Positions 66 to 48,007 of a stretch of 48,053 nucleotides of DNA are shown here, piece after piece. The position numbers and the translations under genes were made by a program. Position 1 is the first letter of the stretch. Each line of letters opens with the position of its first letter. This stretch comes from a virus, in the IMG/VR virus record IMGVR_UViG_3300011432_000022, positions 1 to 48,053 of that record; one strand, given 5' to 3'. The notes under the pieces are model-generated. The model ran no database searches. It was not told the origin of the DNA and saw nothing but the letters and a program-made list of their open reading frames with translations.

Positions 66-410
66 CTAGCTTGCGGTACAGCCAGGGCCATCGGCGTACC
101 AGTCTCGTGATCGTGGCGACGCGATGACGATGAGGCGTGCGCCTTTGGCTTGGTTGCACAGTTTGCCGCAGGTGGGGCAGGGGTTGTTGATGGGGCCTTT
201 GGTGCCGTGTGCGGGTTGCAGGTTCGATTGGTCGTTGACCCCGTCGTAGGTTCCGTATCGTCGGAGCCATGCGTCGACGGGGATGATGTGGTCTGCGGTG
301 CGTGCGCCGTGGTGGCCGCACAGGCCGCACAGGTCTGAGTTGGCGATGCAGGTGGCGACGGCGACGCGGTAGCGGTGGCCGTTGCGCGGGTCGCCGGCTT
401 TCATGCTCAT
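66..410 (-). CDS. HNH endonuclease next to cos
   Basis: This 114-aa protein has the HNH pattern: a Cys pair at 28 and 31, Asp-His at 40-41, the motif NLQPAH followed by GTKG near 63-72, and a second Cys pair at 78 and 81. Small HNH proteins beside the terminase are needed for cos cleavage by the large terminase in several phages (HK97 gp74 family), and that role fits a gene next to the genome end. The ATG at 410 overlaps the stop of the upstream methyltransferase as ATGA, which supports the start and translational coupling. A homing role is the alternative. Confidence 0.82.
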   Translation of the reverse strand: MSMKAGDPRNGHRYRVAVATCIANSDLCGLCGHHGARTADHIIPVDAWLRRYGTYDGVNDQSNLQPAHGTKGPINNPCPTCGKLCNQAKGARLIVIASPRSRDWYADGPGCTAS

Positions 411-1081
411 CCGACGGTCCCGGTTGCGTTGAGGTCCTCGCCGATCTCGACCATCGCGCGGCGTGCCGGCGGAAATTGCCCATAGCCAGGCTCCCGGTAG
501 GCGGATGTGGCGGTCAGGGCAGGGAACTCATTGAGGTCGGCCCGGATGAAGAACGCGTTCACTCCGCTGTTGTCGCAGTGGACCAGGTGGTAGCCCTTGC
601 TGGCGGCCAGCCAGTACAGGGCGAGCAGGCTGGCGCCGAAGTAGGTCGTGCCGTCCCACACGAGGTCCGGATCGTAGTCGACGCTGCGTGCCTGGTTGGG
701 CGGCACGTTGGCGTTGTACTCGACCACCACGAGGCGCGGTGTGTAGGTGTCGTGGAGTGCTTTCCATACCCAGAAGTCGTTCCCGTCGATGTCGATGCAG
801 AGCAGGTCCAGGTCGTGGGGCACTTCGTACTTGGCGAGCAGCTGGTTGATGTTGTCGGCGGTGATGTGTTCGTGCTTGATCGGGGGCGGGTTGCCGTTAC
901 GGCTATCCATTCGCAGCACGTCCCAGCCGTCCTCGAGCAGGTAGCGCGTCAGGCATTGGGTGCCATCACCTACACCGAACTCGACCGCGAACCTGGGGCC
1001 GGTGCCGATGCGGTTGAAGATCTCTTCAATGATGCCGTCCTCGCCGTTCTGCGAGTAGACCCTGCGCTCGAACGGGAGCAT
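407..1081 (-). CDS. FkbM-family SAM-dependent methyltransferase
   Basis: This is a 224-aa class I methyltransferase. The SAM-binding motif VEFGVGDG lies at residues 33-40, an acidic motif DIDGND at 97-102, and an FkbM-like strand VVVEYNAN at about 118-125. FkbM proteins methylate hydroxyl groups, often on sugars. The ATG at 1081 (or the GTG at 1084) is preferred over longer upstream extensions because the tail protein gene ends at 1113 and the residues before it are low-complexity frame shadow. It lies directly downstream of the repeat-bearing tail protein and is coupled to the HNH gene, so the tail protein or a glycan on the virion is a plausible substrate. That substrate is inference. Confidence 0.75.
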   Translation of the reverse strand: MLPFERRVYSQNGEDGIIEEIFNRIGTGPRFAVEFGVGDGTQCLTRYLLEDGWDVLRMDSRNGNPPPIKHEHITADNINQLLAKYEVPHDLDLLCIDIDGNDFWVWKALHDTYTPRLVVVEYNANVPPNQARSVDYDPDLVWDGTTYFGASLLALYWLAASKGYHLVHCDNSGVNAFFIRADLNEFPALTATSAYREPGYGQFPPARRAMVEIGEDLNATGTVG

Positions 1082-9792: not shown

Positions 9793-10026
9793 CGTCGCCG
9801 CCTGCGGTCTCGCGGCGCATGCTCGGCCCACAGCTCCTGCGCCTCGTGCCGATCGACCGCGAGCCGGTAGTAGCAGGCCTAGCTGCCAGGCGTACCAGCC
9901 GGTGTAGCAGAACCCGTCTCTGCCCAACTCGTCACCGGCGGCCGGGGCGAGGTCGAGCACCTCGTGACCCAGCTGGTGCCGGCCTTCCACCGTCCAGTCC
10001 GCATCGGTACGCACCGGCGCCGTCAC
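9789..10026 (-). pseudogene. 78-residue gene interrupted by a +1 frameshift
   Basis: A GTG at 10026 overlaps the previous stop (GTGA) and opens a credible frame through GRDGFCYTGWYAWQLG. The matching C-terminal half, CYYRLAVDRHEAQELWAEHAP, lies one base over and ends in a TGA that overlaps the methyltransferase ATG (ATGA). The crossing point is at about 9877-9881, where the second frame has a TAG. The span is 238 nt, or 79 codons plus one base. Uncorrected, the first frame runs on into the methyltransferase as a fusion. Function is unknown. Confidence 0.65.
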
Positions 10027-10286
10027 CGCAGCCACCGGTCCAGCTCGCGGCACAGGCGTGCGGTCGCAGGATCCGGGCGGCCGCAGTCCGGGCATATCAC
10101 GTCACGCGACCCGTCCGGACGGACCGGGCCGAACTTCCAACCGGCGGCCCTGGCCCGCGCCTCAACCAGGTCACGGCCGGCGGTGAACGGCTTGCCGCAC
10201 ACTTCGCCCACCGCACGCGGGAGTCGACCGGCGACGGCGCGGCCGTTGCACTGCACGGTCACCAGGTCTGCACGTCGGTAGCTCAT
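10023..10286 (-). CDS. Zinc-finger-like small protein
   Basis: The 87-aa protein has VQCNGRAV and EVCGKPFTAGRDL in the first half and a CPDCGRPD ribbon in the second, then a short basic helix. This suggests a small zinc-binding, perhaps nucleic-acid-binding, fold. ATGA and GTGA overlaps join it to both neighbours. No family name can be given. Confidence 0.6.
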   Translation of the reverse strand: MSYRRADLVTVQCNGRAVAGRLPRAVGEVCGKPFTAGRDLVEARARAAGWKFGPVRPDGSRDVICPDCGRPDPATARLCRELDRWLR

Positions 10287-24750: not shown

Positions 24751-25134
24751 ATGACACTGCCAAACCTTGCGAAGACAGACACCCTCTCGGACCGCGTAGC
24801 CGCTCAAATACGCAGAGAGCTGGCCGGGCGGCGACAGAGCCAAGCAAGCCTTGCCAGGGCTATGGGCGTGGCTCAGATGTGGGTATCGGATCGACTGTCA
24901 GGTAAGACGCAGATCGACCTCAACGACCTTCACCGCATCGCCACGACGATGGGCCTAACGCCGGTCGACCTGTTCCCCAGGCAGGAACGGGAAGTTACGG
25001 TAACGCAGCGTCAATCGAGACAGGCCTATGTCGGTCATGGGTACAACGCCCGGCCGGATCGGGGTGGCCCGCCACCGGGGCCGAGGAGGACTGCGCTCAT
25101 ACCACACCAAACCCACCGTGTCACCAGCCCGTGA
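24751..25134 (+). CDS. XRE-family HTH regulator, probable lysogeny repressor
   Basis: The 127-aa protein has an HTH at about residues 25-60 (RQSQASLARAMGVAQMWVSD, then SGKTQIDLNDLHRIATTMGL) and a basic, Pro-rich tail. No LexA-type peptidase domain is visible, so RecA-driven self-cleavage is not expected. It faces the Cro-like gene across the switch and is followed by the integrase, as expected for a repressor. Earlier starts (ATG 24736, 24739, 24742) are possible; 24751 fits the predicted promoter. Confidence 0.75.
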   Translation: MTLPNLAKTDTLSDRVAAQIRRELAGRRQSQASLARAMGVAQMWVSDRLSGKTQIDLNDLHRIATTMGLTPVDLFPRQEREVTVTQRQSRQAYVGHGYNARPDRGGPPPGPRRTALIPHQTHRVTSP

Positions 25135-25174
25135 CGGACCGTGCGTCCGTCGTCACCTCAAGTTAACGGAGACC

Positions 25175-26035
25175 ATGTCGTTCATGTCTGATCTACTGCC
25201 CGACTACGAAAAGTGGCTACGCGCCGCCGGACGTGCCGACAAAACCATCACCGCCCGCCTCCGCCTACTCAACCACGCCGACCAGCACCTACCCTGGGGC
25301 CTCGACCAAGCCGACGAATCCGAAATCATCAACTACACAGCCGCCGCCGACTGGTCCCCGTGGACCCGCCACACCTACGACGGGCACCTACGCGGCTGCT
25401 ACCGGTGGGCGCTCGCCGCCGGCCGGATCACCCTCGACCCGATGCTGCACATCCCCAAACCACGCCAAGGCGACCGCACCCCCAACCCGTGCGGCGACGA
25501 CGAACTAGCCCTCGCCCTCACCGCCCCGCCGATGCCGTGGCGCCGCGCACTGCTCCTGGCCATGTACGCCGGCCTGCGCTGCTGCGAAATCGTCACCGTC
25601 CGCCGGCAGGACATTGTGGACGGACGCATGCGGGTCCACGGCAAAGGCGGCAAAGTCCGTATCGTCCCTGTCGGACCCCAACTGTGGGCAGAGATCGAAC
25701 ACGCCCCGCCAGGTCTGCTGTGCATCGGCGCCCGCGGCCGGCCCCTCACCGCCCAAATGCTCACCCAGATGCAACGCCCGGTGTGGCGCCGCCTCGGCCT
25801 ACCCGACGAGTTCCGCATGCACCGCGGCCGGCACTGGTTCGCCACCCGGCTCCTCGAGGCCGGCGTGGACATCCGGGTCGTGCAGGTGCTGCTAGGCCAC
25901 GCCAGCCTGCACAGCACGGAGGGCTACACGCAGGTGGTGGACCGGCGTAAGGCTGATGCTGTGACGAGGCTGCCTGACGTCCAGGCGCCCGGGCCGGTCT
26001 CTACCCGGCCCGGGCGCACCGCCGAAGCGGCATGA
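25175..26035 (+). CDS. int: Tyrosine-family integrase
   Basis: The 286-aa recombinase has all expected catalytic residues: Arg135 in YAGLRCCEI, Lys near 157-160 in HGKGGKVRI, His216 and Arg219 in HRGRHWFAT, His242 in LLGHAS, and Tyr251 in STEGYTQV. An N-terminal SAM-like core-binding domain covers about 1-95. ATG 25175 has a good GGAG site. It catalyses site-specific integration. The attP site was not recognised nearby. Confidence 0.92.
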   Translation: MSFMSDLLPDYEKWLRAAGRADKTITARLRLLNHADQHLPWGLDQADESEIINYTAAADWSPWTRHTYDGHLRGCYRWALAAGRITLDPMLHIPKPRQGDRTPNPCGDDELALALTAPPMPWRRALLLAMYAGLRCCEIVTVRRQDIVDGRMRVHGKGGKVRIVPVGPQLWAEIEHAPPGLLCIGARGRPLTAQMLTQMQRPVWRRLGLPDEFRMHRGRHWFATRLLEAGVDIRVVQVLLGHASLHSTEGYTQVVDRRKADAVTRLPDVQAPGPVSTRPGRTAEAA

Positions 26036-32818: not shown

Positions 32819-35068
32819 CTAGCCTGCCCTTCTGTACTGATCCGCCTGCCTACCGGCCTGGTCACCCACCCACACCTCGACCGGACGGGACTCGATGATC
32901 CGCGCCAGCCGGTTCAGGTCGTCGGGATGCATCCGCACAATCCCGCCACCATCCATGGAACCCACCGAACCCATCGAACCCGCGGAGCCACCCGAACCGG
33001 CGCCGGCCGGGATTAGCCCCAGGCCGAACTGGCGGGCCACCTCGCCGAGGATGTCCTCCGACCGGGCCCGTTTGGACAGTGCGAGCGGGATGTACGCTTC
33101 GCCGCCGGTTTCGTCCTCGCCCCAGATCCGCCACGTGCCCGGCTTGACGATCTGAGCCACATGGTTTTCCCGGCCGCCGTCGGCGAAGAACTTGACAATC
33201 CCGCCGTCGGCCGCCTGGAAGCCCCGACCGGTGCGGGCACTCCGCAAAATCTCCTCGGTGATGATTTGGATCCGGACTTTGGTGTCGACCTCCGGCGGGA
33301 TGCGGAACAGTTGATCGGCAAGGTTGCGGATCGCGTCCGCCTCCGCCCCGACCGCGCCGCTCTGCGCGATCGTCGCCTCTTTGAAATCGTCGAGGATCTT
33401 CGTCACTTCCGCGTGGCTGGCGCCGTTCTTCAACTGATCCCTCGCCGCCTCCTGCGCGGCAAGCCCGGACCGCTCCAACGCGACCCGGTTCTCCGTCGCC
33501 TCACGGGTGTTGCCCTCAATCGACTTCGAACCCTCCTCAAACGCCTCTTTGACGCCGTCCAGGCTCAAGTGCGCGGCGAGCAGCGAATCATCAGCCGCCA
33601 GCATTGTGTTGTTCAAAGTCCGCCACGTGTCGATCAGCCGGTCGCCGTCGGTGGCGGCCCGGTCCGTCGCGGTCGCGAGTTTGGTTGTCGACCGCGCCGC
33701 CACCTCGGCCGCGGCCGCATACTCCGGCAGCTTCTTCTTGGCCTCCTCCACAGAAATGCCGGCCGCCGCCGCGGCCTGCTCCAGGCGTTTCATGGCGACG
33801 TCGCCCCGACCCTCGCGGGCCAACTGCGCCAGCGATGCGTCAAAAGCCGTCACAGCCTCGGATGCGCCTTCGAGAGCGACCGTCGCAACGTCCACACCCG
33901 GAATGTTGTCGATGAACTTTTCGAATCCGTTTAGTTCATCGATGTGCTTCAGACCCGAGGCGAGGATCTCCATGTCGCGGCCGAGCACCCGCGCCGATTC
34001 GCCGGCCAATTCAGCTTCCGCACCGGCATCCCCAAGACCGCTCACCACCGCCTCGAGCTGCGGGTTGACGTCCCTTGCCAACACCTGGCTGATCGCCTCG
34101 GAGGCGATGAGCAAACCGACGATGCCGACCCCGTACCGCTTCGCCTTCGCAGCCCCAGAGTCAAGCTGGAACCCCATCACCGACTGGACAGCCGCCCACG
34201 CCCTCGTCGCGGCGATCACCGAACCGATCACGACAGCCAGGCCCGCGACCGACCCGACCAACGGCAACAGCCAATCCTTGTTGCTGTTAGCGAAATTGAG
34301 CACCGCGTTGAGGGTGGGCAGCAGCTTTTCGCCTACCTGCTCCTGAAATTCGCCCCACGCCACCCGGGCCTTGTCCGCCGGCGACGCAGCCGCCGCAGCG
34401 GCCCCGCCGAACTGTGTCGTCAACTCAGCCAGAATGATTTTCTGCGCCGACATGACATCGCCGGCCTCAACAAAGCCGCGGATCTGTTCCTTCTGCTGCT
34501 CGGTGAACTGGATTCCGGCCTTGCTCAACGCGGTGAGTCCTGCGATCGGATCGTTGAGGGCTTTCCCGACCATCGTGATCGAGCCTTGCAGGTCCTTGCC
34601 CAGTGCGGCCGACAGGTTCAAAGCGGCCTCGGTGCCCTGGTCGAAAATGTCGTTCCCTTTACCGGCCTCATTGCGCACGCGGGTGAAGGAAAGCAGAACC
34701 TGGGCGCTGGACTGGATGACGTCATCGTCCACACCGGACAGATCAGCCAACCGGTCCGCCAAAGCACCGACCTGGCCCGCCGTCACGTTGGCCGCGCCAC
34801 CCGTCGACTTGATTGCCGCAGCCGTCAAACGTTGAACCTTCGCAGCCTCCTGCGCCTCCCGGATCGCACCCTTGAAGAAGTCGATAACCACACCGGCAGT
34901 CAGCACCGCACCCATGCCGGCCAGCAGGCTGGTACCGAACGTGTTGCCGACGTCCTTGCCGGCCGCCCCGGTCTTGGACTGGATCTGTGTCTTGAGCTCG
35001 CTGGGGAAGCGACTGCCATCCGGCTTGATATCGACAAATGCGGTGGCCAAACTTTTTCCGCGAGCCAT
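32819..35068 (-). CDS. Tape measure protein
   Basis: The 749-aa protein starts MARGKSLATAFVDIKPDGS, the usual tape measure start. It has hydrophobic segments (about 48-62 and 270-295), long helices (EAAKVQRLTAAAIKSTGGAA, LADRLADLSGVDDDVIQSSA) and a Gly/Ser-rich end. It sets tail length and helps DNA ejection. At about 0.15 nm per residue the tail would be near 110 nm. It is the largest gene in the window. No peptidoglycan hydrolase motif was seen. Confidence 0.92.
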   Translation of the reverse strand: MARGKSLATAFVDIKPDGSRFPSELKTQIQSKTGAAGKDVGNTFGTSLLAGMGAVLTAGVVIDFFKGAIREAQEAAKVQRLTAAAIKSTGGAANVTAGQVGALADRLADLSGVDDDVIQSSAQVLLSFTRVRNEAGKGNDIFDQGTEAALNLSAALGKDLQGSITMVGKALNDPIAGLTALSKAGIQFTEQQKEQIRGFVEAGDVMSAQKIILAELTTQFGGAAAAAASPADKARVAWGEFQEQVGEKLLPTLNAVLNFANSNKDWLLPLVGSVAGLAVVIGSVIAATRAWAAVQSVMGFQLDSGAAKAKRYGVGIVGLLIASEAISQVLARDVNPQLEAVVSGLGDAGAEAELAGESARVLGRDMEILASGLKHIDELNGFEKFIDNIPGVDVATVALEGASEAVTAFDASLAQLAREGRGDVAMKRLEQAAAAAGISVEEAKKKLPEYAAAAEVAARSTTKLATATDRAATDGDRLIDTWRTLNNTMLAADDSLLAAHLSLDGVKEAFEEGSKSIEGNTREATENRVALERSGLAAQEAARDQLKNGASHAEVTKILDDFKEATIAQSGAVGAEADAIRNLADQLFRIPPEVDTKVRIQIITEEILRSARTGRGFQAADGGIVKFFADGGRENHVAQIVKPGTWRIWGEDETGGEAYIPLALSKRARSEDILGEVARQFGLGLIPAGAGSGGSAGSMGSVGSMDGGGIVRMHPDDLNRLARIIESRPVEVWVGDQAGRQADQYRRAG

Positions 35069-36817: not shown

Positions 36818-37126
36818 TTATTCGGTGAGGGCGGGGACAAGGAACGGCCGGGCCGGCCTGTGACGGGTACCGATTTCGCCGAAGACCATGTAGAAGTAGA
36901 CCCGCTCCCAGCCGATGCGGGCCTGCCACTCACGCGCACGCCGGTCCAAATACGGCTCCGAATGGATCGACTGCCCACCCGCCCCGGTGGCCTTCGGCGC
37001 CGCCGCCTGCGCCCGGCGGGTCGGATCCACCGCCGCGTCCATGACGGTTGCTTTGATGGCCTCCGACTGAAAAAACTCTTCGACCGCCTCAAAGTCGATG
37101 ACCACATCCACATCAGGTGAGGTCAT
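36818..37126 (-). CDS. Head-tail connector, HK97 gp10-like
   Basis: The 102-aa protein has a helix (VDVVIDFEAVEEFFQSEAIK), a PTRRAQAAAPKATG segment and a strand ending with FGEIGTRHRPARPFLVPAL. The closing GTRHRPARPFL pattern is typical of HK97 gp10 tail-completion proteins. ATG 37126 overlaps the upstream TGA. Confidence 0.75.
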   Translation of the reverse strand: MTSPDVDVVIDFEAVEEFFQSEAIKATVMDAAVDPTRRAQAAAPKATGAGGQSIHSEPYLDRRAREWQARIGWERVYFYMVFGEIGTRHRPARPFLVPALTE

Positions 37127-37614
37127 GGCGCCGCCCACCCGAACAGACCACCGATCCGCACCGTATGCGTATGAGTGGCGATTGTTTCGTCGTCGGTCGG
37201 TTCGTAGTCGCCGAACCCGCCGGAGTTGCCCAACGCGGACAGGTTGCCGCCCAGTTTCGGATTAGCCTGCAGCACACCGCCGATCGCGTTGCCGACAGCC
37301 TGCGCCCACTCGTCAACCACCTCAAAATCCCGCTCGATGCGCGACCCGACCCGGACGTACAAGGTTTGGTCCACAACCTCCCGGACCAGGATGCCGGGAC
37401 CCTCCTCGGCGGCTTCGTCCTGCACGTACTTCCACCCGCCGCCGTAGATGCACACCCCGCCCATCTCGCCGACCCCCAAATATTTGACCGTCACCTGCGG
37501 CCACCCGTTCGCGATCGCGAGCAGGTCGAACGCACCGCCGCCGCCAGGGGTTGCCTGCGCCCGCAGCAGCGTGATGAGGGCTTTCTTGGACGGCTGACCG
37601 ATGGTGAACGGCAT
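37123..37614 (-). CDS. Tail terminator or connector protein
   Basis: The 163-aa protein sits between the adaptor and the gp10-like gene, where siphoviruses place stopper and terminator proteins. It has an N-terminal helix (PSKKALITLLRAQATP), a beta core (PQVTVKYLGVGEMGGVCIYG, RVGSRIERDFEVVDEW) and a C-terminal strand. Assignment rests on order and size. Confidence 0.65.
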   Translation of the reverse strand: MPFTIGQPSKKALITLLRAQATPGGGGAFDLLAIANGWPQVTVKYLGVGEMGGVCIYGGGWKYVQDEAAEEGPGILVREVVDQTLYVRVGSRIERDFEVVDEWAQAVGNAIGGVLQANPKLGGNLSALGNSGGFGDYEPTDDETIATHTHTVRIGGLFGWAAP

Positions 37615-38453
37615 CAGAAACTCGCCTTCACCATCGGCACCGTGTACCGCTCGTAGGCCGCGTCCACGTCGGGCATGCCGGTTCTTGTCTTGCCCGGCGT
37701 CGACAGCCGGTACGTGCCGCCCTCACCGGACTGCCAGCTGATCGCCCGGTAGGGCACCGACGTTGTGTTCTGCTGCATCCGTGAACGCAGCCGCAGCACG
37801 GAGGCTTCACGGATTCCCAATGGGGGCATGTCCAGTCCGTGCTCATATTCGACGATGACGTTGCCCCGTCCTCGAGGCCACACCTCGTCGCGGTACAGCA
37901 CCCCCTCCGGCGACGGGACCGCGGCGGCAGGGTCGGCGGCCGTCCCGCCGATGGTGAGCGCCCGCACCGCCCTCAGGTTGATGTCGGGCATCACCAGTTC
38001 GTCGGTACCTGAGCCGTGCAACCGGATCCGCATGAACCGGGGCACAAACGCCTGGCCGCAGATGTCTTCGCATTCCTGCTCGGTGCCGATCCGGGCGGCC
38101 ACGATATCGGCGTCCGGGTAGGTCACCGGAGACAGGCCGGTGTCTTCACGGGCCTGAGTCAGGCCGAACAGGAATCCGCCCACCACCTCGACCACGTCCC
38201 GGACGGTGACGGTGGCCCCGCCGAAGCTGCCCGTCCAGTCCATCGTCATAGTGTCCACAGTGGCCTGCGCCGGCGGGGCGAACGTGTACTTGCCGACACC
38301 TGGATGACCGGCTGTGCCGGTGACTACCTCAGTGCCGTCAAGGCGCCGCACGGTCACGGTTACGTTGCCGGCCGCGTCGGTGAGGACCCCGTCCGGCCGG
38401 AACTCGTGCGTCACCGTCTGCAGCGTGGTGACGAGAACACGGATCAGGTCCAT
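37614..38453 (-). CDS. Head-tail adaptor with N-terminal beta domain
   Basis: The 279-aa protein has an N-terminal immunoglobulin-like domain (about 1-90; DAAGNVTVTVRRLDGTEVV, KYTFAPPAQATVDTMTMDW) and a C-terminal adaptor-type part (YPDADIVAARIGTEQECEDI, NLRAVRALTIGG, YEHGLDMPPLGIREA). It is likely the ring that joins portal and tail connectors. Confidence 0.7.
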   Translation of the reverse strand: MDLIRVLVTTLQTVTHEFRPDGVLTDAAGNVTVTVRRLDGTEVVTGTAGHPGVGKYTFAPPAQATVDTMTMDWTGSFGGATVTVRDVVEVVGGFLFGLTQAREDTGLSPVTYPDADIVAARIGTEQECEDICGQAFVPRFMRIRLHGSGTDELVMPDINLRAVRALTIGGTAADPAAAVPSPEGVLYRDEVWPRGRGNVIVEYEHGLDMPPLGIREASVLRLRSRMQQNTTSVPYRAISWQSGEGGTYRLSTPGKTRTGMPDVDAAYERYTVPMVKASF

Positions 38454-39031
38454 GGCTGTGCCCCCACGTGCACCACACCCCAGCCGTACGAGATCCCCGA
38501 CGGCGACCGGATTTCGCTGGTATTCCTGCCCCCGGCCAGTTCGGGCCAGTACGCCGACACCTGGGCGCGCGGCTCGTCCACGTTGATGTCGTGCAGCAGC
38601 ATCAGCCCACCGGCGCGCACCAACGGCCCGAAGGCGGCCACGTCAGCGCGTACACCGTCGTAGCTGTGATCCCCGTCGATGACCAGCACGTCGACCGGCT
38701 GGCCGTCCAGCTTGCCGACCAGCCACTCCAGGCTTGCCGGGTCGTGCGAGTCGCCGATGTGCACATCGGCGCCCCAGGTGTTCAGCGGCTGCCCCGACCC
38801 GCCGGCCGCATATGAGTTGTCAGCCAGGGTGATGCCGTACACGCGGGGGCACACCTGGCTCCATGCGTACAGGGTGCCGCCCGCGTCGCATCCAATCTCG
38901 ACGATTACATGCGGAGCGAGTGCGGCCACCAACGTGAGCGCCTGCGCCAGCTCGTCGGCCCGCTGCGACGCCCGGTGCACGTCGCACGCAGTGCGCGCCA
39001 CCTCCTGCAGGTCGGCTGGCATCGTGCACAT
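38444..39031 (-). CDS. SAM-dependent methyltransferase (CmcI/methyltransf_24-like)
   Basis: The 195-aa protein has motif I IVEIGCDAGGTLYAW near 45-60, an acidic strand VDVLVIDGDHSYDGVRAD and LVRAGGLMLLHDI. These match cephalosporin-hydroxylase-like/sugar O-methyltransferases. ATG 39031 is preferred because GGTGAG lies 9 nt upstream. It is next to the glycosyltransferase-FkbM gene and probably acts on the same glycan. The substrate is unknown. Confidence 0.75.
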   Translation of the reverse strand: MCTMPADLQEVARTACDVHRASQRADELAQALTLVAALAPHVIVEIGCDAGGTLYAWSQVCPRVYGITLADNSYAAGGSGQPLNTWGADVHIGDSHDPASLEWLVGKLDGQPVDVLVIDGDHSYDGVRADVAAFGPLVRAGGLMLLHDINVDEPRAQVSAYWPELAGGRNTSEIRSPSGISYGWGVVHVGAQPWT

Positions 39032-39042
39032 GTGCAGCTCAC

Positions 39043-40983
39043 CTAACCGGTCGGTGTGCAGATCAGGTAGTCGGCTGGGACCGCCTGCTCCGCCACGCCG
39101 TGGGGTGTCCACTGTGTCTGGTAGGTGTACGCCACCGTCCACGTGTAGCCGAGGTCGCGCAGCGTCTGCTCGAGCTCGTCGCGGCGGTAGTAGCCGCAGT
39201 AGTCGTGACATTCGATGAACAGCGTTGGGTGGTGCTTGGCCAGTAGTCCGGACATGCCGCGCAGTGCGTGCAGGTCGGCGCCCTCCACGTCCAGCTTCAC
39301 CAGGTCGATGCGTTCGGCTTCCATGAGGACCGGTGTCGCGTCGAGCCGCTTGGCTGGCACGTCGCCGTGCTCAGGCCCGACGGTCGGATGGCCTTCCGGA
39401 TTGATGGGCAGCGTGCGGGTCGAACCGCCGGCCAACTGGCGGCCCGGGTCGTCTAAACGCAGCCACGTGTGCTCGTCCCATGCGGCTAACTCGAGGACGG
39501 TCACGTTGCCGATGTCGTTGAGCGCCAGGTTGCGCCGTAACGTCTTGGCTGTGTCCGGGTTGGCCTCCACGGCGTACACATGCTCGGCCTTGCCGGCCAG
39601 GCGAAGCGACCAGTGCCCGACGTGGGCGCCCACATCCAGCAGCACCCCACCGTCGGGCATGAGGGAGTCGACGATGGGTTTCAGCTCGGCCTCGTGGTTG
39701 GTGAAACCGAGCGCATCCCCGGTGCCCGTGCCGCGGTCAAGCCACAGCAGCCCGTCGGCCTCCCGGATACGCGGCGGTGCCGGGGCGGCTGGCCGGGCAG
39801 CGTCGTCGCGGCGCCGGTTCACCGCATCCTCGAGCTGCTTGAGTGCCGGCGCCCAGTACTCGGTCAGCACCCGGTCGGCTTGGTAGTCCTGCGCGAACGC
39901 CCACGCCGCTGCCCGCATCTGTTCGTCACGGGCGTGGTCGTACGCCTCAGCGTAGGCGTCCACAATGGCCCCGATGAGGGGCCGGCGGGCCCATGCCCGC
40001 TGGGAGTCGTGCCACAGCGGCTCGCCGGGAACTTTCCACCCGGCGCCGACCAGCTCTGGCATGGCGGTGGTGTCGGTGACCACCACCGGTGTGCCGCACG
40101 CCTGCGCCTCCACGATCGGGACGCCGAACCCTTCGCCCCACGACGTGTTGGTGAGCACGTCGGCCGCCCGGTACAGGTCGGCCACCGCCGACGCGGGCAT
40201 GCCGACCTTGTAGGCGTACTGGTCGGTCACCATGTAGCTGTCCTCGGGGAAGTCGGCCAGCAAGGCCCGCACGTCCACCCCGAGGGGTGTGGTCACATCC
40301 GTGTGCAGCACCAGCACCGCATCCGTGTGCCGGCGGCGCAGCTCCCCGAACGCCAGAATCTGCTCATAGAAGGCTTTTCGGGAGCCGTCCTTGCCGACGT
40401 TGGCCGCCACCATCGCGACCACGAACGCATCCGCCGGCAAACCGACCCGCTCCCTAGCCTCGGCCTTGTCACCGGGGAAGAACACCGACGGGTCGTAGCC
40501 GTGAGGCACGTACAGCGGCGAAAGGCCCAGCTCGGCCAGCTTGGCCTCACCGAACCGGGACATCGCGATCGGGATGGATCCGGTCTGCTCAAACCAGTCC
40601 GCCACGTTCGGCGGCACCGTCTCGTGATCGATGGGCACCCACGCGGCCGTGTTCATGTCCGCCAGCAACGGAACCTGGAAGGTCCACACATCCCCGAGCG
40701 TGATGATCAGCCCGCGGTTGGCCACCTCCTGCAGGGAGTGCCCCGGCCCACCTCCGCCGAAGTGATCGACCGCGTGTGGAATGAGCATGTCCCGGCCGTA
40801 CGATTCGGCATAGGACGGATACACGGGCAGACCGTGCCAACTCGTTTTCGCGCCCATCCAGCCGTAGTAAGCGCTGATCGCCACGTCGTGCCCCGCGGCG
40901 GCGATGCGTGGGGTGAACAGGCCGGTCTGCGTGCCGTAGCCGGTACCGACCCACGGGGCCACACTGTGCCAGAGGATCTTCAC
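39043..40983 (-). CDS. Glycosyltransferase-FkbM methyltransferase fusion
   Basis: Residues 1-390 form a GT-B fold GT4-type glycosyltransferase, with the EX7E motif in EGFGVPIVE (284-292) and ACGTPVVVTDTTAMPELVG after it. A Pro/Ala linker (about 395-410) leads to an FkbM methyltransferase (about 430-640) with motif I LDVGAHVGHWS (449-459) and LVKLDVEGAD near 560. The 646-aa enzyme could add and then O-methylate a sugar. It is inside the head operon, coupled by ATGA, so virion proteins are likely acceptors. Confidence 0.85.
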   Translation of the reverse strand: MKILWHSVAPWVGTGYGTQTGLFTPRIAAAGHDVAISAYYGWMGAKTSWHGLPVYPSYAESYGRDMLIPHAVDHFGGGGPGHSLQEVANRGLIITLGDVWTFQVPLLADMNTAAWVPIDHETVPPNVADWFEQTGSIPIAMSRFGEAKLAELGLSPLYVPHGYDPSVFFPGDKAEARERVGLPADAFVVAMVAANVGKDGSRKAFYEQILAFGELRRRHTDAVLVLHTDVTTPLGVDVRALLADFPEDSYMVTDQYAYKVGMPASAVADLYRAADVLTNTSWGEGFGVPIVEAQACGTPVVVTDTTAMPELVGAGWKVPGEPLWHDSQRAWARRPLIGAIVDAYAEAYDHARDEQMRAAAWAFAQDYQADRVLTEYWAPALKQLEDAVNRRRDDAARPAAPAPPRIREADGLLWLDRGTGTGDALGFTNHEAELKPIVDSLMPDGGVLLDVGAHVGHWSLRLAGKAEHVYAVEANPDTAKTLRRNLALNDIGNVTVLELAAWDEHTWLRLDDPGRQLAGGSTRTLPINPEGHPTVGPEHGDVPAKRLDATPVLMEAERIDLVKLDVEGADLHALRGMSGLLAKHHPTLFIECHDYCGYYRRDELEQTLRDLGYTWTVAYTYQTQWTPHGVAEQAVPADYLICTPTG

Positions 40984-41291
40984 TCGGCCGCCCCGCTCGC
41001 TCGGGCCGGCTGCGCCTTAGCGGGGGCCGCCTTCTTGGCGGCCACGGCCTGCGCATGCCGTTCGTGTAGCTCGTCGCGGAGCTGCTCGTTGGTCGGCAGG
41101 CTCGGAGCCTGGTCAGCCTCGGTCGGTTCGTCGTCAAGGATTTCGATCAGGCCGACGGTGACTTGACTGCGGATGGCATCGCACATGTCAGCGTCGTCGT
41201 CGTCGATCAGGGACTCCCGATCGGCCATCGCAGAAAACACGCGGCCGTCGCGCGTGCGGACGTTGACGTGGTCGAGTGTCTTGATCCTCAT
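40980..41291 (-). CDS. Small head-region protein
   Basis: The 103-aa protein starts with two strands (MRIKTLDHVNVRTRDGRVF), has an acidic middle (DDDDADMCDAIRSQVTVGLI) and an Ala/Lys-rich end (AVAAKKAAPAKAQPARA). Such basic tails can contact packaged DNA. ATG 41291 has a GGGAGA site. Function is not established. Confidence 0.6.
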   Translation of the reverse strand: MRIKTLDHVNVRTRDGRVFSAMADRESLIDDDDADMCDAIRSQVTVGLIEILDDEPTEADQAPSLPTNEQLRDELHERHAQAVAAKKAAPAKAQPARASGAAE

Positions 41292-41581
41292 CGGAGTCTC
41301 CCGTCTTTCATGTCGGCCACATACCGGTCGCGTTCCGGGAACGAGCCGCGGCGCATGCCGGTGAGTAGGTCGTCGCGGACCTGGCCCACCTCGCGCGGCC
41401 AGTGCAGGATCTCGGCCGCGTTGACGGTGGCGCCGGATCGTTTGAGCCGGCGCACATATTCGCGGGTGATGCAGTCCGGGCAGCCGGGCCTCTCGCATCC
41501 GACGACGTGTTCACCGTCGCCGAACTGTCGCTGGCAGCCGTGCCCGCCGACCGCCTCGACGGTGACGCGGAACTCTCCCAC
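41288..41581 (-). CDS. Cys-rich 97-aa head-region protein
   Basis: GTG 41581 begins FRVTVEAVGGHGCQRQFGDG, then VVGCERPGCPDCITREYVRR, giving a zinc-ribbon-like set. The C-terminal half is helical and charged. It lies downstream of the capsid hairpin. No family is recognised, and a structural or assembly role is inferred from place only. Confidence 0.6.
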   Translation of the reverse strand: MGEFRVTVEAVGGHGCQRQFGDGEHVVGCERPGCPDCITREYVRRLKRSGATVNAAEILHWPREVGQVRDDLLTGMRRGSFPERDRYVADMKDGRLR

Positions 41582-41685: not shown

Positions 41686-42975
41686 TTAGAGCAGGTACTT
41701 CGCGAACGCGGCCGGGCGCATCACGTCGCCGCCGACGCGAAGTTTGAAGATGAACGCCACCAACCCCAGCTCGGCGAACCGTTCGTCCAACCGCTGGACG
41801 CTGATCTTCTGGCGGTCGGCCAGCAGGTAACCGAGCTGCGGGTCTCCGAAGATGACTGACGCGTCCACCGCGGCAGCTGACGAGCCCATCGACGGCAGTC
41901 CTTCGAGGGTGAAGAAAGCCTTCCCGAACAGGGTGTCCGGCTCGCCCGCCCTAACCGAGGGCTGCCACAGGTAGTTGGATGTGGAGTCCTTCAGCAGGGC
42001 AATGGCCTCGGCCGCGTCGATCGACGCGTAGTAGGCGCCGTTGGGCCGGAACCTGGTCGGCACCCGATACTGCAGCGACTTCAGGTTGTCGCCCGTCGGT
42101 ACTGCGTTCGCGGCCGCGGTGACGGCCTGCGTGATCTGGTTGGCAGCCGACGTTGCCCGCGCGGCCAGACCCCACGGCTTCGAGACGCCGTTACCGGCGG
42201 CGAACGCGTCGTCTTCCTGCATGGCCATCTGCTGCCCGACGATGTCCTGAATCAGTGCAACCAGGTTCGCGTCGGTGTCGGCCAACTCGTCCACGCCGAT
42301 CTTCGACATGGCCAGCAGGTCGTGTACCTCGACCACGTCGACCGGTGTGGACGGCACGACGTTGGCGTCGGTGGGGGCCGCGCCCAGGACTTCGATCTTT
42401 CCCCAGCCGGCGGTGGCCTGGGTGAGGGAACGCAGGTCGACCTTGTTGGATGTGGTGGGCCGGATCGTCGGTCCCGAACCGCGGAACACACCCAGCCGGG
42501 GCAGGGTCTTGAAGATCGGGCCGGCGATGTCGTGCGGCACGATGACCTCACCGGTGGCATCCTCAACCAGGTTGGCCTTCTCCGCCGCATCAAGGCTGTC
42601 GATCCAGGTCTGGTTTTTCCAGCCGTGCCGGATGGCCTTGGCGAACAGTTCGACCTGCCGGCGCTTCATCACCTCTTCGTAGCCGGAGCCGACGGTTCCG
42701 TTCGTGCCGGCGGCGGCTGCCGCGGCGGCTGCCTCGGCGGACAGTGCGGAAGGGATCTGATCGGGTTCGCGGCCCCACGACTCCATGTCGTCCTGCTGCT
42801 TCTCCAGCGCCGCCAGATCCTGCAGCCGCTTGGCTTCCTTCAGCAGGGTCTGCATCTTGACCGCGTCCTCGCCCGGGATCTTCGTCGGGTCGGGGTGACG
42901 GTCGCGGATGGTACGGGCCAGACTGACGCATTGCAGCGCCTTGTCTACCAATGCTTTCTGGGTGACCTGCGACAT
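41686..42975 (-). CDS. HK97-type major capsid protein
   Basis: The 429-aa protein has an N-terminal helical delta-like domain (about 1-110; KMQTLLKEAKRLQDLAALEK) ahead of the HK97 fold. The fold shows EVIVPHDIAGPIFKTLPRLG, NKVDLRSLTQATAGWGKIEV, VVEVHDLLAMSKIGVDELAD, then RPNGAYYASIDAAEAIALLK, and a final GGDVMRPAAFAKYLL. GAGGTGGAG precedes ATG 42975. The N-terminal part is probably removed by the upstream protease. Confidence 0.9.
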   Translation of the reverse strand: MSQVTQKALVDKALQCVSLARTIRDRHPDPTKIPGEDAVKMQTLLKEAKRLQDLAALEKQQDDMESWGREPDQIPSALSAEAAAAAAAAGTNGTVGSGYEEVMKRRQVELFAKAIRHGWKNQTWIDSLDAAEKANLVEDATGEVIVPHDIAGPIFKTLPRLGVFRGSGPTIRPTTSNKVDLRSLTQATAGWGKIEVLGAAPTDANVVPSTPVDVVEVHDLLAMSKIGVDELADTDANLVALIQDIVGQQMAMQEDDAFAAGNGVSKPWGLAARATSAANQITQAVTAAANAVPTGDNLKSLQYRVPTRFRPNGAYYASIDAAEAIALLKDSTSNYLWQPSVRAGEPDTLFGKAFFTLEGLPSMGSSAAAVDASVIFGDPQLGYLLADRQKISVQRLDERFAELGLVAFIFKLRVGGDVMRPAAFAKYLL

Positions 42976-43151: not shown

Positions 43152-44303
43152 TCAGGACTGGCGAAGCTGCGCCTCCAACGCGTCCAGCTCGGCCGAGGTT
43201 TGGTCCTGGCCGCCGCTGTTGAGTAGGTCGTCGATCGGGTCGGTCGCGGCGTCGGGTGAACCGTCGACGAGGCTCAGCGCATAACGAGCCGGGTCGTCGC
43301 CGGTACCCTCGTCCCCGCCGCCCGTGTCGGGGTCGACCGATCCGTCGTCGGCGGCTGTTTCCGCCAACTGGTAGTGGGCGCCGACTAGCGAGTCCACGGC
43401 CGCCTTCCGCGCGGCCGGCACGCTGATCGACAGAGCTGAGCGCATGTCCGTCACCCACGTCTCGTCAAGCGCGTCGGTGCGGGCGTGGTCGTCCAGGTGG
43501 CCCTGCAGGTGCGCCCGGGCCACTGTTTTGGCCGCGTCGTCCAGCCCGGCCACTGTGGACAGCTTCGCCAATGCCGACCGGACCGCGGTCAGGTTGGCCG
43601 GTCCGGGCTGACCGTCGGCGCCGACCTCATGGTGCGGCAGTGCGTAGCTGGCCTTGCTCGCCAGATCCGTGTTCCCCGGGACGAGCACGGCAAACATCTT
43701 GACCAACGCGTCCGTGGTCGCCGCCACCCGCTCGACGTGGCCGTCGGCGTTCCACGCCCGGTCGATGACGGGGCTGCGATGCGCGCCGCCCTTCACCGCG
43801 GTTACGAGCGCGTCGGGGTTGGCCGGGTAGGCAGTCATCGAGACTTCCATTAGGCCCACCTCGTGGAGGATGCGGATCTCGCGGCCGTCGCGCATCTCGT
43901 ACGACTTGCGCATGATCGGCCCGAAAATCGAGAGCCCGTTGACGTGGCCCTCTTTGGCCAGCTGCCGTGTGTTCTGCGCCTTCGGGCTGTTGGAGTAGCC
44001 GGCCGCGAACTTCATACCGTAAGGGGTCTCACTGGCATTAGTCAGCGATCCAATCACATTGTCAGACGAATGATCGTGGTCCACTGCCAAAGGGATGACC
44101 CGCTTCGTAGACCGCCACAGCTGCAGCGTCTTCGCGAACGCCCCAGGCATGACAATATCGTCCTGTGCGTCGATAACGTTGTAGACCGCCGCCCAACCCT
44201 CGACAGTGCCCGGGCCGGCATCGGCCTTAGACGCCGTGTCAGTCAAATGCATCGGGACGACGCCGCCGTGTCCGATGCGCAGCCACTCAGCCTGGTCCGC
44301 CAC
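43152..44303 (-). CDS. Prohead protease with C-terminal extension
   Basis: The first 170 residues are an HK97 (S78) protease: GWAAVYNVIDAQDDIVMPGAF, the catalytic His in AVDHDHSSDNVIGS (76 or 78), and Ser125 in VNGLSIFG. The remaining 210 residues are mostly helical and end in an acidic, coiled-coil tail; this part may serve as the scaffold, since no separate scaffold gene exists. GTG 44303 lies just past the portal stop. Confidence 0.88.
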   Translation of the reverse strand: MADQAEWLRIGHGGVVPMHLTDTASKADAGPGTVEGWAAVYNVIDAQDDIVMPGAFAKTLQLWRSTKRVIPLAVDHDHSSDNVIGSLTNASETPYGMKFAAGYSNSPKAQNTRQLAKEGHVNGLSIFGPIMRKSYEMRDGREIRILHEVGLMEVSMTAYPANPDALVTAVKGGAHRSPVIDRAWNADGHVERVAATTDALVKMFAVLVPGNTDLASKASYALPHHEVGADGQPGPANLTAVRSALAKLSTVAGLDDAAKTVARAHLQGHLDDHARTDALDETWVTDMRSALSISVPAARKAAVDSLVGAHYQLAETAADDGSVDPDTGGGDEGTGDDPARYALSLVDGSPDAATDPIDDLLNSGGQDQTSAELDALEAQLRQS

Positions 44304-44306
44304 TGC

Positions 44307-45740
44307 TCACACCTCCATACCTGTTCGCGCACCCAACATTGACAGCTCGTCCGGACGTAACTCGATACCAAACTCGGCGGCGAGCAGCCCTACGCTCGCG
44401 GTCACCGACTCGCCTGCCGGGGCCAGGTCCTGCCCCACCCCCTGCTGGATCACCCCGGCCGGGATGAGGAACACGTCACCGCCAGGCACCGACGGCAGGC
44501 CGATGATGAGCCGGAAGTCGTTGCGGGTGATGCCGCCGCGGGTGAATGCCGCCGTCGCCCGTTCCCACAGGTTCTGTTGTGATTCCTTCAACGCCTGCAC
44601 TTCGGAGTTGTCCCACTTCACCGACACACGGCGCCGGCCGACTCCGTTGAACTGTGGCAGCATCCACGACCGGACCGGCTCGAGGAAGCGGCGCTGTTCG
44701 GAGAACATGGCCTCTTCCCAGAACGACAGCCGCGCCTCCCGGTAGTCCTTGTAGGCGTTGTGCTCCAAACCGACCTTGGCGCCGACGAGAATCGGTTCCA
44801 CCCCGAACACAGAGCAGATCCGCGTCTCGGACACGGAGCGCAGGTCGGGGAATTCCAGATCGGTCAGCTTCATCGTCAGTTCGTGCAGCTTCATGCCCTT
44901 TTGCAGGAACGCCGGCTCGCCGCGGCGGCTGCCGCCGAACGCCTCCCTCCACTTGGCCTTCAGCCGCTTGGAGATGGTTTCGGTGACCTCAGCCTCAGAC
45001 TCGATCACCACCGACGGCATGGCATGGTTGCGCAGCAACGTGTCCACAAAGTCGGTGGCCGCATTGTCCAATGTGGTTACCCGTGCTGCCGCGCGTAGCG
45101 GCGGCTGGCCGAAATACCGCCACGCCGGGGTGTTCGGATTCGGGTTCGGGTAGCGGATCCGGATCATGTACGTTTCCGCATCCCTGGCCCGGGCCGACCC
45201 GGCGTCGGGGATCGGCACCATGATCTCGGGCCGTTCCGGGTCGGGCCGGTAGATCCACACATAGTCGGCCGGGTTGCGCGGGTTGGGCAGCACCCCAACC
45301 AGGTCCGGGCGTAGCGGCCACAGCTCCGACGGCAGCCCGTCGCGGCCGTTGACGACCAGCCAGAAACAGGTACCCGCCAAATCCTTGTAGGTGACCGACA
45401 GCTCGAAGAACTCGAACTCGTTCGTGACCGGGTTCGGTTTCTCAAACACCTGCCGAAGCCGATGGTCGTCGATCGGCAGCCCGTTACCCGTCGGATAGAC
45501 CCGCAACACCGACTGCGGCAGCGACTCGGCCCGGTACCTGATGCACGCGTACACCAGCTCGTTGCGGCCATACCCGTTAGTGGCGTAGTTGGCGTACGAG
45601 CCGTCCTGTTCTACCATCGCGGCCAGGTTCGGCCCGCCGGCGGCGGTGCCAGAGGGCAGGGACATGAAACTCTGCCGGCCGTCGGCGATTGTGGCGATGT
45701 CCTTTGCGGTCGTCTCCCGCGGCCCGGTCAGCCAGCCCAC
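44307..45740 (-). CDS. HK97-family portal protein
   Basis: The 477-aa protein shows portal signatures: YGRNELVYACIRYRAESLPQ, VFEKPNPVTNEFEFFELSVT, GTCFWLVVNGRDGLPSELWP, FGVEPILVGAKVG, and RGGITRNDFRLIIGLPSVPG. It forms the dodecameric entry ring for DNA. GTG 45740 starts just after the membrane gene stop. Size is normal for the family. Confidence 0.93.
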   Translation of the reverse strand: MGWLTGPRETTAKDIATIADGRQSFMSLPSGTAAGGPNLAAMVEQDGSYANYATNGYGRNELVYACIRYRAESLPQSVLRVYPTGNGLPIDDHRLRQVFEKPNPVTNEFEFFELSVTYKDLAGTCFWLVVNGRDGLPSELWPLRPDLVGVLPNPRNPADYVWIYRPDPERPEIMVPIPDAGSARARDAETYMIRIRYPNPNPNTPAWRYFGQPPLRAAARVTTLDNAATDFVDTLLRNHAMPSVVIESEAEVTETISKRLKAKWREAFGGSRRGEPAFLQKGMKLHELTMKLTDLEFPDLRSVSETRICSVFGVEPILVGAKVGLEHNAYKDYREARLSFWEEAMFSEQRRFLEPVRSWMLPQFNGVGRRRVSVKWDNSEVQALKESQQNLWERATAAFTRGGITRNDFRLIIGLPSVPGGDVFLIPAGVIQQGVGQDLAPAGESVTASVGLLAAEFGIELRPDELSMLGARTGMEV

Positions 45741-46185: not shown

Positions 46186-47808
46186 TTAAAAGATGTCCGG
46201 TTCCGGGACCACTGAGCCCTTCACCTCAACGCCGTGCATCGCCAACACCACCCCGTACAGGGGGCGCAACGCATCGACGGTGCCCTTTTTTACGAACGTG
46301 AACGCACCACCGCTGCCGTGGTCCAACTTCTTCGCCGACGCCAACGCCCGCTCCAGCTCAATCTGTCCAAGGTGGCGCACCCGAACCCCGTCATCACCCC
46401 TGGGCGTCTGATCGTCGTCGACCAGATACGGCACCTCACTCTCACGCTTTTCCCCAGTCGCGTCGTAGAACCGGCCACACGCACCGGCGATCTCCAACCC
46501 GTTCGGAGTCAACACGTCAACGCCCGCATTCTTCAACGGCACGATGAACGCCGCCGCCGGCGACCGGGGATCAATCACCCACGTATACGGCTTCCGCGCC
46601 TTGTCGAGCGCCAACGCACAGCGCAGCACCCAATCGATACCCACAACGTCTGCCGCCACCCCGTGGCCCGGCTCCACCACCTCAACATGCCAGTCCTCAT
46701 CAAGCCGCTTCCCCGCCGAACAGACAAAGGCACGCTGCCGGTCCTCCGTCATCTCGATCGACATGGCCGGCGTGCCCGCAATGAACGAAGCCGGGTCGCG
46801 CAGACCCTCCCATGTGTCGTACCGGATGACCGTCCACTTCGGAGATGCCACCGTCGGCTCCCATCCCAGATACTCCGCACAGAAGTCGACGAGATCAAAC
46901 TCGTCGAAGTCCTCCGCCACCGTCTTTTCCGTCACCGTCCGGCCCAGGCCTGGCATGCACGAATACCACGTCGCCGGGTCACCCGGGTCGGTCGTCTCCG
47001 CGTTCCCGGCAGCAGTGAAGTCAAACAGCGCCGACCCGCGCCGCACGCCAGCCTCAATACGGGCACGACCGATCTCACGCTTCCTCCGAAGGTAAGGCCA
47101 CGTCCCCGGCAACGCCCGCGACAAACCAGGAATCATCGACGCAATCAGCAGCTGCGACCACGGCCGGGTCATCTTCGCCGGCCGCATACCCAACTCTGTA
47201 CGAGAGTCCGGCCGCGACCACGCCTCATCGATCACACCCAGATCGAGCGAGTCACCCGTACCCGCCGTCTTCCCGGTAGTGCTACCCGGCGACCACGCCG
47301 ACCCGTTCTCCCACAAAATGGCTTCCATGTTGCGCTGCACACGAAAGTCGAACTGGCGGCGCGGCCGGTAGTAGCTCGAGGCTTTCAACCGCTCCAGATG
47401 CACCTTCCGCCACTTCTTACGCGCATCGTCGGCGGTTTGCGCCGTATACAGCACCTCCTGCGGACCAGGCGGCCGCAACACAATCCCAAGCTGATCCCGC
47501 ACCCAACCCGTCAACGCCTCATCGAACCCGACACAGCGGTGAGTCATCACCGGCAGGATCAACTCAGTCTTACCCGTCACCTGCCGAGGCCCGATCACGA
47601 CCACTTCCGAATAGGCCAGATACCCGGTCGCCGGATCAATCTCAAACGCCACATCCACGATATGCCGCTGATGCGGCATCAACGGCTTACCCAGCCGCCG
47701 CGCCACCTCCGCCACCTGCGACCCCAGCGTCGGCCGGCCCGGCGTCCTCGGCGTCCCATGAAGGGGCCGGGAGCTGCCCAGCCGAACCGCCGCCGCCGTC
47801 AGCGTCAC
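46186..47808 (-). CDS. terL: Terminase large subunit
   Basis: The 540-aa protein has PLMPHQRHIVDVAFEI, Walker A GPRQVTGKT (73-81), Walker B with the DE pair in LGVIDEAW (194-195), and C-terminal nuclease acidic residues near VVGIDWVLRCALALDK and YTWVIDPRSPAA. It drives DNA packaging and cuts the ends. GTG 47808 is chosen because GGGAGG lies 6 nt upstream; it overlaps the small subunit by about 120 nt, so a later start cannot be excluded. Confidence 0.93.
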   Translation of the reverse strand: MTLTAAAVRLGSSRPLHGTPRTPGRPTLGSQVAEVARRLGKPLMPHQRHIVDVAFEIDPATGYLAYSEVVVIGPRQVTGKTELILPVMTHRCVGFDEALTGWVRDQLGIVLRPPGPQEVLYTAQTADDARKKWRKVHLERLKASSYYRPRRQFDFRVQRNMEAILWENGSAWSPGSTTGKTAGTGDSLDLGVIDEAWSRPDSRTELGMRPAKMTRPWSQLLIASMIPGLSRALPGTWPYLRRKREIGRARIEAGVRRGSALFDFTAAGNAETTDPGDPATWYSCMPGLGRTVTEKTVAEDFDEFDLVDFCAEYLGWEPTVASPKWTVIRYDTWEGLRDPASFIAGTPAMSIEMTEDRQRAFVCSAGKRLDEDWHVEVVEPGHGVAADVVGIDWVLRCALALDKARKPYTWVIDPRSPAAAFIVPLKNAGVDVLTPNGLEIAGACGRFYDATGEKRESEVPYLVDDDQTPRGDDGVRVRHLGQIELERALASAKKLDHGSGGAFTFVKKGTVDALRPLYGVVLAMHGVEVKGSVVPEPDIF

Positions 47809-48007
47809 GAGCAACCTCCCTCAACTGCCCCAGCGTGACACGCAACTCAGAAGCCAACCGCACCGTCGTCGTCGGCGCCTGCCCATCCCGATCGTCAATC
47901 GTCCGCGCCAGAAACAACGCCAACTCCGCCAACGCACTACGATGCGCCGCCCGCGACTGCCCCAACAACCGCAACTCCCGCATCACCGCCCGCTCCATCG
48001 CCTTCAT
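47687..48007 (-). CDS. Probable terminase small subunit
   Basis: The 106-aa protein from ATG 48007 is helical (RELRLLGQSRAAHRSALAEL, LASELRVTLGQLREVARDA) and ends in a Gly/Ala-rich tail after LPAPSWDAEDAG. It is the first gene from the right end and precedes the large subunit, as expected for the cos-recognition subunit. The low-complexity tail lies inside the large-subunit frame, so the true end may differ in importance. Confidence 0.7.
   Translation of the reverse strand: MKAMERAVMRELRLLGQSRAAHRSALAELALFLARTIDDRDGQAPTTTVRLASELRVTLGQLREVARDADGGGGSAGQLPAPSWDAEDAGPADAGVAGGGGGAAAG

What the first reader, a model, noticed from the sequence alone, without database searches (positions are those of the whole stretch)
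38444..40983. Two-gene sugar-modifying unit within the head operon
A glycosyltransferase fused to an FkbM methyltransferase and a CmcI-like methyltransferase lie between capsid and connector genes. A third methyltransferase (407-1081) follows the repeat tail protein. Together they could build a methylated glycan on virion proteins, which may shield against receptors, antibodies or proteases. Glycosylated virion proteins have been reported in mycobacteriophages that encode glycosyltransferases.
Basis: partly seen in the sequence, partly recalled or inferred. Interest (0 to 1): 0.7.

Follow-up and report, generated by a model that had tools for sequence, protein, structure and literature searches.

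The report
Capsid-linked phage sugar-and-methyl cassette
This phage carries, directly behind its main shell gene, a sugar-attaching enzyme fused to and followed by methyl-adding enzymes, and relatives across many uncultured phages keep the sugar enzyme in that same place, which suggests that they coat their own shells with a methylated sugar.

Summary
Window 39043-40983(-) encodes a GT4 glycosyltransferase fused to an FkbM methyltransferase. Window 38444-39031(-) encodes a CmcI-like O-methyltransferase. Both are translationally coupled between the major capsid protein (MCP) gene and the head-tail adaptor. The 'third methyltransferase' (407-1081) is a weak FkbM-like enzyme and is not part of the conserved unit.

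New evidence shows this is no stray cargo. All 37 of 37 IMG/VR loci with a >50% related MCP and enough sequence downstream carry the GT4 behind the MCP. GT4 is the best-conserved gene compared and co-diverges with the MCP more than with its own fused FkbM domain. In several relatives GT4, FkbM and CmcI are one polypeptide. A wider GT4 family (at least 468 IMG/VR loci, only two isolates) sits 0.1-2 kb downstream of the MCP in 42 of 43 records with a recognisable MCP, across two MCP families.

Best reading: a soluble cassette that glycosylates a head protein, most likely the MCP, and O-methylates the glycan. This works like the proven mycobacteriophage (Che8) and chlorovirus (A064R) systems but uses an unrelated GT family. 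Acceptor, sugar and biological role are untested.

The parts
41686..42975 (-). Major capsid protein, HK97 type (start approximate); the likely acceptor
   Evidence: PF05065 E 2e-43, phrog_10; 47 IMG/VR relatives
41288..41581 (-). Small Cys-containing protein between MCP and GT; kept in some close relatives
   Evidence: sequence; 61-74% identical in L097, L100, L102, L104, L105
40980..41291 (-). Small conserved protein directly before the GT; ATGA overlap with the gene before it and GTGA overlap with the GT start. Many relatives carry a SAP-like C-terminus
39829..40983 (-). GT4 glycosyltransferase domain (aa 1-385) of the fused gene; EX7E motif EGFGVPIVE; GTG start 40983
   Evidence: AlphaFold model, GT-B fold
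39043..39771 (-). FkbM methyltransferase domain (about aa 405-646) of the fused gene; SAM motif DVGAHVGH and KLDVEG motif
   Evidence: PF05050 E 1e-17
38444..39031 (-). CmcI-like O-methyltransferase (195 aa); in L010, L011-L014 and L105 fused to the GT-FkbM protein
   Evidence: PF13578 E 2e-11, PF04989 E 2e-6
37614..38453 (-). Head-tail adaptor; its ATG overlaps the end of the CmcI-like gene
   Evidence: phrog_442 E 3e-17
407..1081 (-). FkbM-like methyltransferase after the repeat protein; not part of the conserved cassette
   Evidence: PF05050 E 0.046; 6 of 11 aligned family members match PF05050; absent at this place in L101, L104, L113

Best explanation
A late-expressed capsid-glycosylation cassette. 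The soluble GT4 domain transfers a sugar from a host nucleotide-sugar onto a head protein, most likely the major capsid protein. The fused FkbM domain and the CmcI-like enzyme then O-methylate that sugar, giving a methylated glycan on the shell. SHOWN computationally: the domains with their motifs and folds; the coupled operon position behind the MCP; fixed linkage to the MCP in this capsid lineage even where the genes further downstream differ; the one-polypeptide fusions; strongest co-divergence with the MCP; MCP-adjacency across the wider GT4 family. INFERRED: catalytic activity, that the acceptor is the MCP (rather than the small neighbour or another head protein), the identity of the sugar, methylation of the glycan rather than of the protein, and the selective role (shell stabilisation, or surface masking against proteases, grazers or adsorption).
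For: (1) GT4+FkbM and CmcI-like domains with intact motifs; AlphaFold pLDDT 86, GT-B fold like MshA and the chlorovirus GT 3oy2. (2) ATGA/GTGA overlaps and an overlapping ribosome site tie the genes to the MCP-adaptor operon. (3) 37/37 loci with >50% related MCP and >=1250 nt downstream have GT4 (31 clusters at 95% MCP identity), gap 0.3-2.3 kb. (4) GT4 stays with the MCP while downstream genes differ. (5) Median identity: GT4 63%, MCP 58%, portal 55%, TerL 45%, protease 39%. (6) Pairwise-distance correlation GT4-MCP 0.87, against GT4-portal 0.70, GT4-FkbM 0.69, GT4-protease 0.55; GT4-MCP was higher than GT4-FkbM and GT4-portal in all 300 site bootstraps. (7) Three-domain fusion GT4-FkbM-CmcI in L010, L011-L014, L105. 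(8) Wider family: 42/43 records with an MCP have it 82-2004 nt upstream on the same strand; about 5 expected from random placement (about 11 if same strand is granted); two MCP families. (9) GT2, epimerase or methyltransferase genes follow GT4 in family members. (10) No hydrophobic stretch of the kind a membrane helix needs. (11) Precedents: Che8 encodes a GT2-Methyltransf_24 fusion and its virion proteins are glycosylated (PMC12363180); PBCV-1 A064R is a GT-GT-MT protein that builds the methylated Vp54 glycan (PMC7019647).
Against: No biochemical or mass-spectrometric data exist here for any member. Co-inheritance of neighbouring genes could by itself raise the GT-MCP correlation; within the near clade alone GT4-MCP (0.67) equals GT4-FkbM (0.68). 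The MCP C-terminus carries no extension like the glycan-bearing C-termini I recall for mycobacteriophages. The GT is not homologous to the proven virion GTs. No nucleotide-sugar pathway was recognised among the window proteins tested, so a host donor is assumed.
Confidence: 0.72

Rival explanations
1. The enzymes modify the host envelope (wall glycan, teichoic acid or capsule) to block superinfection or change receptors; the position in the late operon is incidental.
For: Phage GTs often do this (O-antigen conversion, general knowledge); an integrase at 25028-26035 suggests a temperate phage; authors of freshwater actinophage isolates E7/F5 proposed this or DNA protection for their GTs (PMC10202952).
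Against: Fixed MCP adjacency across two MCP families and 37/37 retention; co-divergence with the MCP; no membrane segments in these enzymes; a late-operon position is odd for a prophage-expressed conversion gene.
Confidence: 0.12
2. The cassette glycosylates and methylates a virion protein other than the MCP: the small protein before the GT, the adaptor or the tail tube, with the MCP link only reflecting operon order.
For: A short protein of the 40980-41291 type precedes the GT in many members; tail tube subunits are also glycosylated in mycobacteriophages (PMC12363180).
Against: The small protein is poorly conserved (18-38% identity) while GT4 is not; genes downstream of the cassette differ between members while MCP and GT stay linked; the MCP is the best co-diverging partner of those tested.
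Confidence: 0.1
3. The GT modifies phage DNA (a sugar on a modified base) for defence against restriction.
For: Phage GTs that modify DNA exist (T4 AGT/BGT, general knowledge); a DNA N6/N4 methylase is in the window at 9016-10095.
Against: No modified-base biosynthesis gene was seen among the window proteins scanned (not all were scanned); the partners are FkbM and CmcI-type O-methyltransferases; the MCP linkage is unexplained.
Confidence: 0.05

Closest known systems
Mycobacteriophage virion glycosylation (Che8 gp108-110, Corndog, Myrna; Freeman 2023, doi 10.1016/j.chom.2023.05.028, cited in PMC12363180)
   Same: Phage-encoded GTs, one fused to a methyltransferase (Che8 gp108 = GT2 + Methyltransf_24); capsid and tail tube proteins are glycosylated (PMC12363180).
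   Different: Che8 GTs are GT2/GT25 type, not homologous to the GT4 here, and lie at the right genome end far from the MCP. Here the GT4 is MCP-adjacent and universal in its capsid lineage.
Chlorovirus PBCV-1 A064R and Vp54 glycosylation (PMC7019647)
   Same: A multi-domain GT-plus-methyltransferase protein made by a virus to build a methylated glycan on its major capsid protein; chlorovirus GT 3oy2 is among the closest solved folds.
   Different: Eukaryotic algal virus, two GT domains and one methyltransferase, N-glycan; here one GT4 and two methyltransferases in a tailed phage. Functional analogy only.
Capsid-adjacent GTs of Microcystis phage Mae-JY09 and Pontimonas phage phiPsal1
   Same: Same GT4 family (42% and 34% identity), directly behind the MCP and before the neck or adaptor.
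   Different: Partners differ: an NAD-dependent epimerase/dehydratase-type gene (Mae-JY09), a methyltransferase and a GT2 (phiPsal1); no FkbM fusion. The phiPsal1 host paper does not discuss the phage's GT.

Membership tests
GT4 retaining glycosyltransferases (GT-B fold) | Sequence match to GT group 1 models | tested here: met
   PF13692 48 bits (cut-off 27), PF00534 45 bits (cut-off 26.4), PHROG 2170
GT4 retaining glycosyltransferases (GT-B fold) | EX7E catalytic motif and GT-B fold | tested here: met
   motif in 53 of 55 rows of the GT set; Foldseek top hit MshA, TMt 0.64
FkbM methyltransferases (PF05050) | Domain match above curated cut-off with SAM motif | tested here: met
   65 bits, cut-off 22.7; strict SAM motif I in 19 of 27 aligned sequences
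CmcI / rhamnosyl O-methyltransferases (PF04989) | Domain match above curated cut-off | tested here: met
   window protein 28.4 bits, cut-off 23.2; relative L099 falls below cut-off
CmcI / rhamnosyl O-methyltransferases (PF04989) | Methylation of a sugar or small molecule | not testable with these tools
   needs an enzyme assay
Virion-glycosylation systems of phages (as in Che8) | Virion protein carries a glycan dependent on the phage GT | not testable with these tools
   needs mass spectrometry of virions
Virion-glycosylation systems of phages (as in Che8) | Homology to the proven GTs (Che8 gp108-110) | tested here: not met
   no mycobacteriophage hit to the GT-FkbM protein at E 1e-5; hhalign with gp108 probability 0.1%; gp108-110 are GT2/GT25 type

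The most novel reading that the evidence does not exclude
Glycosylation is an obligate step of head assembly or stability in this capsid lineage, carried by a dedicated MCP-co-evolving GT4 family that has become associated with at least two MCP families and is decorated by interchangeable modules (FkbM, CmcI, GT2, epimerase), like a serotype cassette.
Probability: 0.3. Interest if true: 0.82.

Novelty: new variant of a known kind. Interest (0 to 1): 0.64.

Why it matters
Glycosylated phage virions are documented for a few mycobacteriophages. This work points to a separate GT4 family, almost absent from phage isolates (2 close members among 50,697 records) but common in uncultured phages (at least 468 loci), that travels with the capsid gene. 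If it glycosylates capsids, surface glycans would be a widespread property of environmental phages, and phage GTs now read as DNA-protection or superinfection factors (for example PMC10202952) would deserve re-examination. The question becomes directly testable with an isolated phage (Mae-JY09).

Tried and rejected
Megablast of the region against phages: no match. The third methyltransferase as a cassette member: rejected, absent at that place in relatives. A C-terminal Ser/Thr tail on the MCP as acceptor: none, the MCP ends AFAKYLL. Invariant Ser/Thr sites in the MCP were listed but do not point to one acceptor. Host assignment: one Micromonosporaceae MAG contig (L097), but no other hit in a 300-genome sample of that family, so the host is unproven. 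Control with CmcI-like methyltransferase loci: only 2 of 50 records have a phrog_10 MCP at all, so it is a weak positional control; random placement was used instead. Corndog was not in the collection. The Freeman 2023 full text is not held.

Full report
Observation. The window is a 48,053-base IMG/VR virus record. The head operon runs on the minus strand: TerL 46186-47814, portal 44307-45740, protease 43152-44303, MCP from about 42975 to 41686, two small genes, GT-FkbM 39043-40983, CmcI-like 38444-39031, head-tail adaptor 37614-38453, neck 36818-37138, tape measure 32819-35068. The GT-FkbM gene matches GT group 1 models over aa 1-373 and FkbM over aa 450-613; the next gene matches Methyltransf_24 and RMNT_CmcI. 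Junctions are tight: ATGA at 41288-41291, GTGA at 40980-40983, a Shine-Dalgarno overlapping the GT-FkbM stop before ATG 39031, and the CmcI-like end overlapping the adaptor ATG. So the cassette is translationally coupled to the capsid operon (read from sequence).

The claimed third methyltransferase (407-1081) is FkbM-like only weakly. In relatives L101, L104 and L113 the repeat protein is followed directly by an HNH gene and then the terminase genes, so this gene is specific to the window phage or few others and is not part of the unit. The same comparison suggests that the window is a circularly permuted genome, because the window's repeat protein, methyltransferase and HNH gene at its low end would run into TerL at its high end; no terminal repeat was found.

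Conservation in the capsid lineage. A scan for the GT-FkbM protein found nine loci, always with the MCP upstream where the contig reached it and the CmcI-like gene downstream. A scan for the MCP found 47 loci. Of 45 with >50% MCP identity (the window lineage and the Micromonosporaceae contig L097 included), 37 have at least 1250 nt downstream and all 37 carry GT4, 0.3 to 2.3 kb behind the MCP; these make 31 clusters at 95% MCP identity. Among loci with enough sequence, only the three at 35% MCP identity lack it. GT4 is the most conserved gene compared (median identity to window 63%; MCP 58%, portal 55%, TerL 45%, protease 39%). In several divergent members the genes downstream were not recognisable as the window's tail genes, yet MCP and GT4-FkbM stay together. 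The CmcI-like gene is present in a subset only.

Fusions. In L010, L011-L014 and L105 the GT4, FkbM and CmcI-like domains are a single open frame of about 840-870 aa; L015 and L016 show FkbM and CmcI in one frame or adjacent at a contig edge. Window and L009 have two genes. This is classic fusion evidence that the three activities serve one product.

Co-divergence. Over 20 dereplicated loci, GT4 distances correlate with MCP distances at 0.87, more than with portal (0.70), with the fused FkbM domain (0.69) or with protease (0.55). GT4-MCP exceeded GT4-FkbM and GT4-portal in all 300 site bootstraps, and in nearly all subsamples of 12 taxa. Part of this comes from a two-clade structure: within the near clade GT4-MCP (0.67) equals GT4-FkbM (0.68). 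It is supportive, not proof.

Wider family. In 50 of these records, 43 have an MCP recognisable as phrog_10 (26) or phrog_267 (17). All 43 are on the GT strand, and in 42 the MCP ends 82-2004 nt upstream (median 491), against about 5 expected from random placement. They form 25 clusters at 60% GT identity. MCP type follows the GT tree with 4 changes (15 in shuffles), at least 2 forced by well-supported branches: the GT has become associated with different MCP types more than once, each time in the same position. The gene after GT4 is often another glycan gene: a GT2 as in phiPsal1 (19 of 79 loci), a Mae-JY09-type epimerase region (about 8), FkbM or CmcI. Among 50,697 phage records only Mae-JY09 and phiPsal1 carry close relatives, both with the GT directly behind the MCP.

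Structure. AlphaFold2 on 27 sequences gives pLDDT 86 (pTM 0.63) with two domains. Nearest solved structures are retaining GT-B enzymes (MshA; also chlorovirus 3oy2, TMt 0.70); viral models nearby include uncultured-phage RfaG-type GTs and FkbM methyltransferases. No hydrophobic stretch of membrane-helix strength was found in GT-FkbM or the CmcI-like protein, which argues for cytoplasmic action.

Mechanism and its limits. Most likely the GT4 places a sugar on a head protein, probably the MCP, and the two methyltransferases cap it with O-methyl groups. Shown: anatomy, linkage, fusion, co-divergence, family-wide position. Inferred: activity, acceptor, sugar, methyl positions, benefit. The MCP has no C-terminal extension, so if the MCP is the acceptor the site is elsewhere; invariant Ser/Thr positions were listed but no site is claimed.

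Comparison. Virion glycosylation by phage GTs is known from mycobacteriophages (Freeman 2023, via PMC12363180). Che8 gp108 proved to be a GT2 fused to a Methyltransf_24 domain, a striking parallel, but it is not homologous to this GT4 and its genes are far from the MCP. Chlorovirus A064R is a GT-GT-methyltransferase protein that builds the methylated glycan of the Vp54 capsid protein (PMC7019647). So the cassette works like these, but is not a member of the Che8 GT families. Authors of freshwater actinophage isolates with GTs suggested DNA protection or superinfection exclusion (PMC10202952); the present linkage argues that the capsid should be tested first. No paper describing this MCP-adjacent GT4 family was found in the held library, which is incomplete.

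Noticed in passing
L133:3520-4495, L127:9627-10099: Tandem paralogous small Gly/Pro/Asn-rich proteins (MADSVFGDLGG...) lie between MCP and GT4 in divergent members; function unknown.
   Followed up: no
L104:2314-4875: The TerL frame is 853 aa and appears interrupted right after the ATP-binding GPRQNTGK motif by an intein-like insertion; judged by eye from the first 200 residues only.
   Followed up: no
window 40980-41291 and homologs (alignment A6): Many homologs of the small protein before the GT end in a SAP-like motif (ELRDLARDRGLPVSGTKDELITRL).
   Followed up: no
window 66-410: HNH-type small protein (CGLCGH...HIIP) that would directly precede the terminase genes if the genome is circularly permuted.
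   Followed up: partly
L007:5752-6726: Sinorhizobium phage phi3LM21 carries an FkbM methyltransferase directly behind its tail fibre genes, like the window's 407-1081 gene behind the repeat protein.
   Followed up: no
window 25028-26035, 9016-10095: Tyrosine integrase (temperate lifestyle likely) and a DNA N6/N4 methylase.
   Followed up: no
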